Source of the DNA: Nipponacmea schrenckii
Lineage: Eukaryota; Mollusca; Gastropoda; Lottiidae
Assembly (NCBI GenBank): GCA_030562195.1
Contig: CM060199.1
Location: forward strand, 15,582,338-15,646,337
Length of the DNA: 64,000 nt
Direction of reading: 5' to 3'
How positions within the stretch are numbered: position 1 is the stretch's first letter; every line of letters begins with the position of its first letter. Below the pieces are notes generated by a model. That model was not told the origin of the DNA. It did not search any database and saw only the letters and a list, made by a program, of their open reading frames with translations. Position numbers and translations under genes: made by a program. Positions 51,047-53,026 of this stretch are shown piece after piece.

Positions 51047-53026
51047 CTAGCCAGCATGGATGTCTTGTATATGACCACCCATTCCGTCCATGCCTGCGTG
51101 TAAAGGTGGACTGGTTGCTGCAGACATGCCATGATGTCCCATACCAGCGGTTGGATGACCCATCATCATGTGATGGGGATGACCAGGAATTAACATAGCT
51201 TGTGAATGAACTGGAGGACTAAATTGTGACATATTTCCATAAGAACTACTTGGAGGTCCACCATACATATCACTCCTGTGCATGCCCTGTACACCCAACA
51301 TATGATCATATCTTTGGGAACCGTCTGTCAAATGAGAATAACCAGCTTTCATTGGATCATACATATCAGCGCTATGAATGCCACCTAATCCTGAAAAACA
51401 AGAGAATCAAAATTTAATATTCAGACTTATTTTGCAACTGGGTTTGACATGTAAATATCCTTTTCAGGGAGTTTTTACTCTTTATTTGATTCATTTGAAA
51501 AAAAAAAACCCAGAAAAATTGACAAAATAACAATGACATTAAAGAAATCATAAACTAAGTACATACCCATTTGCATGTGAGTGTTGTCCATATAGCCCAT
51601 ACCAGAGCCATCAGGGCTGTAAGGAGCATGAGATCCAGGTCCTAAAATTAAAATAAAAAAATATTAAACAAAAATTGCAACATATTCTAAATTACAAGAA
51701 TTATCTGTCTAGCCAATTGGAAAATCCTTCAAATATAAATGAGCAAAACAATAACTTGAATATAAAAGAAAATATTATCATTATATTGTATGGAGTTCAA
51801 AAAGTTTGAACACTATATAATTAATATGCTTCAGTCTGAATACGCCTTAATTGATATTTTTAAAAACTTATGATTATAAGGTACTTAAGAACACTTGAAT
51901 ACAAGTACTTAGCATTATATGATTAATTTTCTAAGATAAAAAAACAACAAAAATTATTGATTTTTTGATATGAAAGAATAGAATTATTTCAAAGAATAGC
52001 TGACAATCCAATCAAGACGGCTTAGGTCAATAGCTGCATAGAAATTAACCAATCAGATGGGAGAAGATGTTTATGTGCATGACTGCTGATCTATGACTTG
52101 TTCTCGTGACAACACTCAATGGCACTAACATGTGACTCAAGTCACAGAGAAAGTTCTCCAAATGTAAACTAGCCAATTGAATCAAATATATATGAATAAA
52201 AGATATGAAAGAAAAGTAGTTCATTTCTCTCTAGTTCCACCTTTATGTTTATTTACAACAATTTTCTAATGAAATGTGACTATTTTGACATATGGATATT
52301 GCGATTTGAATAATGACAATGAACTCATAAAAACAACTGAGGTTAATTTCTTTTATATTCAAGTCATAAGAGTTTTCATTTAAAGAAGGATTTTGGTTGT
52401 TTAAAAACCATTACAACACCTGAACCATATGTTATAATGCTCAAATAAAAATCAAAGTTTATTGTGCTCAGCTTTCAAGTGAGAAAACTTTGTTCTAGTA
52501 TTTCTAAAGCTTACATGATTTATGAATTTCAATAAAAACTACTATTTCTAAACTACTGATAAAAAATAGATAAAATGTAGGTAAAAACCAAAGAGAGAGT
52601 GAAGAAAGGATAAATAAAGGGAAGGATCATGCAGGATAAAAAAAAAGGAATAAAAAAGAAAATAAACAAAAAATTTTGAGGAATGCAGGAAAAGCTGCAG
52701 AAAAAAAACTAAAATCATGCTATGGAAAGAGAAAAAAAAACAAAAAAAACATGCAGGAATTTTGCTTTTCAGAATTGTAAGTCATCCTTTGCGATTTGAC
52801 CTTCACTGAATGTCAAGGCTATTGATCACATGGTCTCTTTCCCTCTCTCCAGTTGGTTGTTTTCCATTGTCATGGGACTCTAATGTTACCTGGTGAGAGA
52901 CCGAGAGTATCGGCAGATGACGACTTACGCCTCCTATTTTTGAAGACCGTAACGAGTTGTGACTTGCCTGCTCTATTAGATTGATCTATCATGGGTTGAA
53001 CTATTCTTCTTCTGGCATTGATAAAC
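51047..53026 (-). CDS. MEIS: MEIS/homothorax TALE homeobox protein, last three coding exons
   Basis: MEIS/homothorax proteins are TALE homeodomain cofactors of PBX and HOX factors. Exons: 53026-52890, 51641-51567 and 51390-51047, with phases agreeing. The first opens within the Trp of the homeodomain recognition helix and reads FINARRRIVQPMIDQSNRA, the MEIS-diagnostic end, then GKSQLVTVFKNRRRKSSSAD. The last two encode a Gly/Met/His-rich tail (APYSPDGSGMGYMDNTHMQM, HPHHMMMGHPTAGMGHHGM) ending QDIHAG. The N-terminal MEIS domain and the rest of the homeodomain must lie right of 64000: no matching exon was seen at 53027-64000. Internal splice sites in the first exon are listed separately. PKNOX and TGIF are excluded by the QPMIDQSNRA sequence. 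Confidence 0.94.
52628..52755 (-). promoter_or_regulatory. RBFOX-type motifs downstream of the MEIS splice sites
   Basis: In the transcript sense, TGCATG occurs at 52755-52750 and 52633-52628 and GCATG at 52720-52716, within 270 nt after the distal donor, in a pyrimidine-rich stretch. Downstream intronic (U)GCAUG is the classic RBFOX enhancer position. Confidence 0.4.
52882..52970 (-). promoter_or_regulatory. MEIS: Three nested in-phase 5' splice sites in a MEIS exon
   Basis: On the minus strand the exon closing the homeodomain can end at 52968 (AGCAG before GCAAGT, a consensus GC-AG donor), at 52929 (GAGGC before GTAAGT) or at 52890 (CACCAG before GTAACA). Spacing is 39 and 39 nt. All three leave one base, so every choice joins in frame to the exon at 51641. 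The shortest form reads SNRAGPGSHAPYSPDG, close to vertebrate MEIS; the others insert 13 or 26 residues, rich in Arg and Ser. Confidence 0.6.

What the first reader, a model, noticed from the sequence alone, without database searches (positions are those of the whole stretch)
52882..52970. Three competing in-frame 5' splice sites, exactly 39 nt apart, right after the MEIS homeodomain
The sequence shows AG|GCAAGT at 52968, GC|GTAAGT at 52929 and AG|GTAACA at 52890 on the coding strand. The identical spacing and identical phase mean each choice makes a full protein with 0, 13 or 26 extra residues. The shortest joins SNRAG to PGSHAPYSPDG, resembling the vertebrate MEIS sequence there; the extension is basic (FKNRRRKSSS) and adds a possible second nuclear-localisation or DNA-contact patch with phosphorylatable serines. 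A consensus GC-AG donor is itself rare (about 1% of introns) and often linked to regulated splicing. I know of no description of this triple arrangement.
Basis: partly seen in the sequence, partly recalled or inferred. Interest (0 to 1): 0.8.

Follow-up and report, generated by a model that had tools for sequence, protein, structure and literature searches.

The report
Limpet MEIS gene's optional basic tail
A limpet developmental control gene has three in-frame splice points just after its DNA-binding part; they would let an ancient basic tail, also found in sharks, roundworms and corals, be left out, half kept or fully kept.

Summary
On the minus strand the exon starting at 53026 has three in-phase donors: after 52968 (CAG|GCAAGT, exon 59 nt), 52929 (GGC|GTAAGT, 98 nt) and 52890 (CAG|GTAACA, 137 nt). 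The gene is the MEIS/homothorax gene of Lottia gigantea or a very close relative.

The interpretation needs changing. The 26 extra residues are no local oddity: the same extension (GKSPVVTVFKSRRRKSSS-like) follows the homeodomain in cnidarian, nematode, tardigrade, hemichordate, vertebrate and Haliotis proteins. Relatives are annotated with the long form (Haliotis) and the short form (Patella and three other gastropods). One hemichordate isoform ends its exon at the same Arg codon as 52929. The exon most likely encodes two optional modules of about 13 residues. The exact 39+39 spacing is not conserved (Haliotis 42+39, hemichordate 39+42).

No RNA data or DNA of relatives could be checked, so use of each site in the limpet is inferred. 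A 2011 paper on Meis gene structures, cited in the library but not held, probably covers part of this. Filed as a new member of a known kind; the possible new point is the deeply shared middle donor.

The parts
52968..53026 (-). Constitutive part of the exon: end of the TALE homeodomain, (W)FINARRRIVQPMIDQSNRA(G), 59 nt
   Evidence: The same exon (E13) is 59 nt with a GT donor in 7 of 7 insects of Table 1 of PMC7392893
52962..52967 (-). Donor 1, GCAAGT (GC type); short form, 0 extra residues
   Evidence: CAG|GCAAGT, 8 of 9; short product annotated in Patella, Gigantopelta, Bradybaena, Biomphalaria; use in this animal not shown
52929..52967 (-). Optional module 1, codes KSQLVTVFKNRR plus split Arg codon (13 codons, hydrophobic then basic)
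   Evidence: conserved from cnidarians to vertebrates
52923..52928 (-). Donor 2, GTAAGT inside the Arg-Lys-Ser codons; middle form, 13 extra residues
   Evidence: GGC|GTAAGT, 6 of 9, all six intron positions perfect; same Arg codon used in Glandiceps P0110; use in this animal not shown
52890..52928 (-). Optional module 2, codes KSSSADTLGLSP plus split Gly codon (13 codons, Ser/Pro-rich)
52884..52889 (-). Donor 3, GTAACA; long form, 26 extra residues
   Evidence: CAG|GTAACA, 7 of 9; long product annotated in Haliotis rufescens (P0001)
51567..51641 (-). Next exon with the shared acceptor (TTTTAG|GACCTGG), codes PGSHAPYSPDGSGMGYMDNTHMQM
51047..51389 (-). Last coding exon, ends ...HIQDIHAG-stop
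52628..52755 (-). Intron stretch with TGCATG at 52755-52750 and 52633-52628 and GCATG at 52720-52716, inside a pyrimidine-rich tract; candidate regulator sites
   Evidence: looked at after reading the sequence, a lead only

Best explanation
This exon of the limpet MEIS/homothorax gene ends in an optional tail set by competition between 5' splice sites. Choosing 52968 drops an ancestral 26-residue extension, 52890 keeps all of it, and 52929 keeps only the basic first half. Shown: the sites, the frames and the deep conservation of the coded peptide. Inferred: that the spliceosome uses each site in the limpet, and how. U1 would meet a GC site matching 8 of 9 positions, a GT site with a perfect intron side but a poor exon side, and a GT site with a good exon side but weak +5/+6, so no site plainly wins and regulators could tip the balance. 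The extension continues the DNA-recognition helix as an unstructured basic arm. I infer that module 1 adds DNA-backbone or nuclear-import affinity and that the serines of module 2 tune it by phosphorylation.
For: Extension-like peptide right after SNRA in 115 of the 120 proteins listed (113 by pattern; P0046 and P0091 by eye); the query carried the extension, so this shows where it exists, not how common it is. Haliotis long form: 24 of 27 aligned columns identical in the extension against 17 of 25 in the next, constitutive exon. Short form in 4 gastropods. Glandiceps P0110 against P0020 and P0021: in this region they differ only by RKSSSSQSPGGPSPV becoming L, as expected if a C|GT donor in the third Arg of RRR is used; elsewhere they differ only at the first residues or by one Gln. 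Codon choice fits donors at both GKS and RKS (0.10% by chance).
Against: No transcript evidence for this animal. Middle product seen in one species only (one of 120 listed proteins), by a predicted isoform. 22 of the 24 new proteins, mostly lophotrochozoans, lack the extension (the other 2 could not be read), so many lineages may have lost it. The Lottia model P0002 is the same animal or nearly so, runs past donor 3 and supports none of the junctions. RNA folding is no better than shuffles (z 0.00). The extension is not resolved in the model (pLDDT below 50), so its function is inference.
Confidence: 0.6

Rival explanations
1. Only the outer donors work (short against long form); GTAAGT at 52929 is a chance match inside Arg-Lys-Ser codons.
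For: Its exon side GGC fits poorly (6 of 9); a codon match of this kind arises in 4.1% of draws; no mollusc protein with the middle junction was among the 144 proteins held.
Against: A hemichordate isoform uses the same codon. The database is clustered at 90% identity and hides isoforms, so absence in molluscs says little.
Confidence: 0.27
2. The extension is constitutive here, as nematode and cnidarian entries suggest, and the GC site at 52968 is unused or rare.
For: GC donors are 0.98% of animal introns. Extension strongly conserved in Haliotis.
Against: Patella, the nearest annotated relative, is annotated with the short form, as are three other gastropods; the 59-nt exon end is that of insects; GC donors were reported enriched in alternatively spliced genes (PMC2490688, start of abstract in the listing).
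Confidence: 0.08
3. The tail mainly feeds an alternative 3' end: the intron is kept, the frame runs on to GNIRVP-stop and polyadenylates inside the intron, giving a MEIS without its C-terminal exons.
For: The Lottia gigantea model P0002 ends GNIRVT where this genome reads GNIRVP-stop; AATAAA on the transcript strand at 52463 and 52253.
Against: P0002 is marked partial and its last residue differs from the window; AATAAA is common in such AT-rich DNA; Haliotis splices at donor 3.
Confidence: 0.03
4. The 39-nt spacing reflects a tandem duplication of one 39-nt unit.
For: Equal length and a shared G[CT]AAGTC start of the two units.
Against: Past Lys-Ser the two peptides do not resemble each other, and the two steps vary separately in relatives (42+39, 39+42).
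Confidence: 0.02

Closest known systems
Extended isoforms of vertebrate MEIS1 and MEIS2 (e.g. P0013 Callorhinchus, P0016 Phocoena X3, P0039 Pangshura)
   Same: Same peptide at the same place after SNRA; the long form ends in a split codon that joins VSQG. The canonical short form SNRA-VSQG is recalled, not fetched
   Different: Donor DNA not seen; no vertebrate middle form established (P0109 and P0111 have odd tails that could not be placed); MEIS2 adds a further GFLLDPS insert
Glandiceps talaboti MEIS1-like isoforms X2, X4 and X5
   Same: X5 stops at the third Arg of RRR, the codon of 52929; X2 and X4 are the long form
   Different: Second step 42 nt and not 39; predicted isoforms; donor DNA not seen; its short form was not among the proteins held
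Haliotis rufescens MEIS1-like X1 (long) and Patella vulgata MEIS1 X1 (short)
   Same: The two outer products of the limpet exon in other gastropods
   Different: Haliotis has one residue more in module 1 (42 nt); neither shows the middle form
Drosophila hth 3/48-bp exon 8 (PMC7392893; outline and sections 3, 7 and 8 seen)
   Same: Same gene; overlapping exons by alternative 5' splice sites, in frame, with tissue-specific functions (abstract)
   Different: Lies between the MEIS domain and the homeodomain; other sequence; arose within flies; two sites, both GT in the table seen
Meis/hth gene-structure study, Irimia et al. 2011 (doi 10.1093/gbe/evr056)
   Same: Recalled from its abstract: many isoforms, parallel gains of internal splice sites and parallel losses of ancestral coding sequence in the 3' region, 22 species
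   Different: Text not held; could not check whether this nested three-donor exon is described

Membership tests
MEIS/HTH/UNC-62 TALE homeodomain genes | TALE homeodomain (PF05920) with MEIS-type C-terminal sequence | tested here: met
   PF05920 exon at G000:C8:15654481-15654564, 8.1 kb past the window; FINARRRIVQPMIDQSNRA 100% identical
MEIS/HTH/UNC-62 TALE homeodomain genes | N-terminal MEIS (PBX-binding) domain on the same gene | tested here: met
   Exons with HPLFPLLALIFEKCELATCTPREP and the following blocks, in order and on the same strand, over the window plus 80 kb
Ancient MEIS homeodomain-tail extension | GKSPVVTVFKSRRRKSSS-like peptide directly after SNRA | tested here: met
   Core 12 to 15 of 18 identical to Hydra, Trichinella, Nematostella, tardigrade, hemichordate and vertebrate entries, 9 of 18 to C. 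elegans (8 entries compared)
Alternative 5' splice site exon | Several donors, one acceptor, frame kept | tested here: met
   Sequence level only
Alternative 5' splice site exon | Each donor used in transcripts | not testable with these tools
   No RNA reads on hand; annotated isoforms of relatives support the outer two in gastropods and the middle one in a hemichordate
GC-AG intron | GC donor with otherwise strong consensus | tested here: met
   CAG|GCAAGT, the other 8 of 9 positions match; splicing at it not shown
Conserved equal-spaced (39-nt) donor array | 39+39 spacing kept in relatives | tested here: not met
   42+39 in Haliotis; 39+42 in Glandiceps and in MEIS1 of Phocoena and Lepisosteus; 39+39 only if the tardigrade junction is placed as assumed (distances inferred from proteins)

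The most novel reading that the evidence does not exclude
A three-step splice switch that sets the length of a basic homeodomain tail (0, about 13 or about 26 residues) is ancestral to protostomes and deuterostomes. Its donor signals are written into the conserved codons for GKS and RKS, so splicing and protein selection together froze these residues; where the switch was lost, as perhaps in nematodes, the Lys of GKS became Arg.
Probability: 0.25. Interest if true: 0.65.

Novelty: new member of a known kind. Interest (0 to 1): 0.42.

Why it matters
MEIS proteins help HOX and PBX factors choose DNA targets (established knowledge). A tail that can be added in steps right beside the DNA-reading helix, and whose sequence is kept from corals to limpets and sharks, is a plausible and easily tested dial on that choice. 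It is missing from the four distinct MEIS chain sequences that one search found among solved structures; the longest match ends at SNRA.

Tried and rejected
Tandem duplication as the cause of the 39-nt spacing: rejected. RNA structure hiding donors: minimum energy no better than shuffles (89 of 200 fold at least as well). Structure prediction: extension not resolved, so no fold search was run. A 9-nt micro-exon to explain the AHR that Patella has between the last two coding exons: not found in the intron 51566-51390. Literature: a search with six peptide strings found 0 papers (sequences are rarely printed, so this says little). The listings and the passages I opened showed no description of this exon; the library lacks Irimia et al. 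2011. The vertebrate short form and the human MEIS1 sequence are recalled. Names of RNA-binding factors for the motifs (Rbfox, PTB) are recalled.

Full report
What is there. The exon lies on the minus strand and starts at 53026 with the end of the TALE homeodomain. One search confirms the three donors and their frames; the acceptor before 51641 serves all three. In the scan of 53026-52600 the only other sites with at least 6 of 9 consensus matches are 52830, in phase but beyond the stop codon, and 52801, out of phase.

Which gene and animal. One search placed exons of the Patella (P0003) and Lottia gigantea (P0002) MEIS proteins in order over the window and the 80 kb next to it. P0002 matches at 100% in five of the pieces listed (69, 36, 18 and 50 residues among them) and lower in others, where the aligned ends run past exon edges (my reading) or where the Lottia model lacks a stretch that Patella has. 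The window is therefore Lottia gigantea or a very close relative, and P0002 is not independent evidence of conservation. The preceding homeodomain exon lies 8.1 kb beyond the window.

The extension is ancient. A search with a short region of the extension gave three gastropod proteins among nine candidates. A wider region gave 160 proteins at E up to 0.001, of which 120 were listed. In those 120, 115 show an extension-like peptide after SNRA: 113 by pattern and two more by eye (P0046, P0091). The other five are four short-form gastropods and P0038, which has a different insert. The 115 include cnidarians (Nematostella, Hydra, Acropora), nematodes, a tardigrade, hemichordates and many vertebrate MEIS1 and MEIS2 entries. 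Because the query carried the extension, this shows where it exists and not how common it is.

Where it was not seen. A search with the short form gave 29 proteins; of the 24 new ones, 22 lack the extension and two could not be read. They include octopus, bivalves, a chiton, two gastropods, annelids, a brachiopod, two nemerteans with other short inserts, spiders, a horseshoe crab and five unnamed contigs. Clusters at 90% identity hide isoforms, so these animals may still have long forms.

The three products in relatives. Long: Haliotis P0001. Short: Patella P0003, Gigantopelta P0097, Bradybaena P0100, Biomphalaria P0106. Middle: Glandiceps P0110. Against its sister isoforms P0020 and P0021 it differs here only by the loss of the second module, with Leu in place of Arg...Val at the joint, as a split codon C|GT turned C|TN would give. 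That is the third Arg of RRRK, the same codon as at 52929. The short exon end (59 nt) is the size of the same exon in seven of seven insects, with GT donors (Table 1 of PMC7392893, section read).

Strength of conservation. In Haliotis, 24 of 27 aligned columns of the extension are identical, against 17 of 25 in the next exon, which all forms share.

Spacing. The first step is 39 nt in Lottia, Glandiceps and two vertebrate MEIS1 entries but 42 in Haliotis; the second is 39 in Lottia and Haliotis but 42 in Glandiceps and the two vertebrates (distances in relatives are inferred from proteins). What is kept is the phase, not the distance.

Donors inside conserved codons. AGKS written GCA GGY AAG TCN contains CAG|GYAAGT, and RKS written CGT AAG TCN contains C|GTAAGT. 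With this genome's codon usage both occur together in about one of a thousand draws. In nematodes the Lys after AG is Arg in 46 of 49 entries (Lys in 2, Asn in 1), against Lys in 54 of 54 labelled non-nematode long forms (of the 120 listed proteins, 13 unnamed and 4 short rows were left out). This fits loss of donor 1 in nematodes, but it may be a single change shared by descent, and cnidarians also keep Lys although I saw no short form from them.

How it may work. The three donors look balanced on paper, which leaves the choice open to regulators. GCATG occurs three times, twice as TGCATG, within about 260 nt after the last donor on the transcript strand; 48 of 5746 overlapping 350-nt windows over 144 kb hold two TGCATG, and the 200-nt stretch 52780-52581 is more pyrimidine-rich (76%) than all but 0.02% of windows. 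TGCATG is not enriched over the whole window (22 against 30.9 expected). I looked at these after reading the sequence, so they are leads only. A review states that PTBP1 controls Meis2 splicing by binding introns (PMC7759197, passage). On the protein side, the recognition helix of the Haliotis model runs to residue 372, the G of SNRAG, and the extension is unstructured, in a model of low overall confidence (mean pLDDT 54). Its role is inference.

Known or new. Passages seen describe Meis1a, Meis1b and homeodomain-less forms (PMC3157405; PMC13379096) and MEIS2 isoforms that differ mainly in C-terminal exons (PMC7371429); none of those passages names this extension. Irimia et al. 2011 very likely treats it for some species, on my recall of its abstract. 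I file the limpet exon as a new member of a known kind. The possible new point is the middle donor shared with a hemichordate, and the coding of both inner donors in conserved residues.

Noticed in passing
52628-52755 (-): Two TGCATG and one further GCATG in a 76% pyrimidine stretch of the intron just after the donors; a possible Rbfox/PTB-type regulator site.
   Followed up: partly
52463 and 52253 (-): AATAAA signals inside the intron; with the frame reading GNIRVP-stop after donor 3 this would allow a shortened MEIS by intron retention and early polyadenylation.
   Followed up: no
51390-51566 (-): Patella, Gigantopelta and Bradybaena proteins have AHR between the last two coding exons; the window lacks it, and no 9-nt micro-exon for it was found in this intron.
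   Followed up: yes
L012-L013 region, joined coordinate 100508-100371 (36 kb past the window): The Lottia model P0002 lacks RPPSHSLNFSQQDDTQ, which Patella has and this genome encodes at the start of that exon; a possible second alternative acceptor in the same gene.
   Followed up: no
proteins P0039, P0046: Vertebrate MEIS2 entries carry both the extension and a further GFLLDPS insert before VSQG, so two separate splice choices meet at this junction.
   Followed up: no
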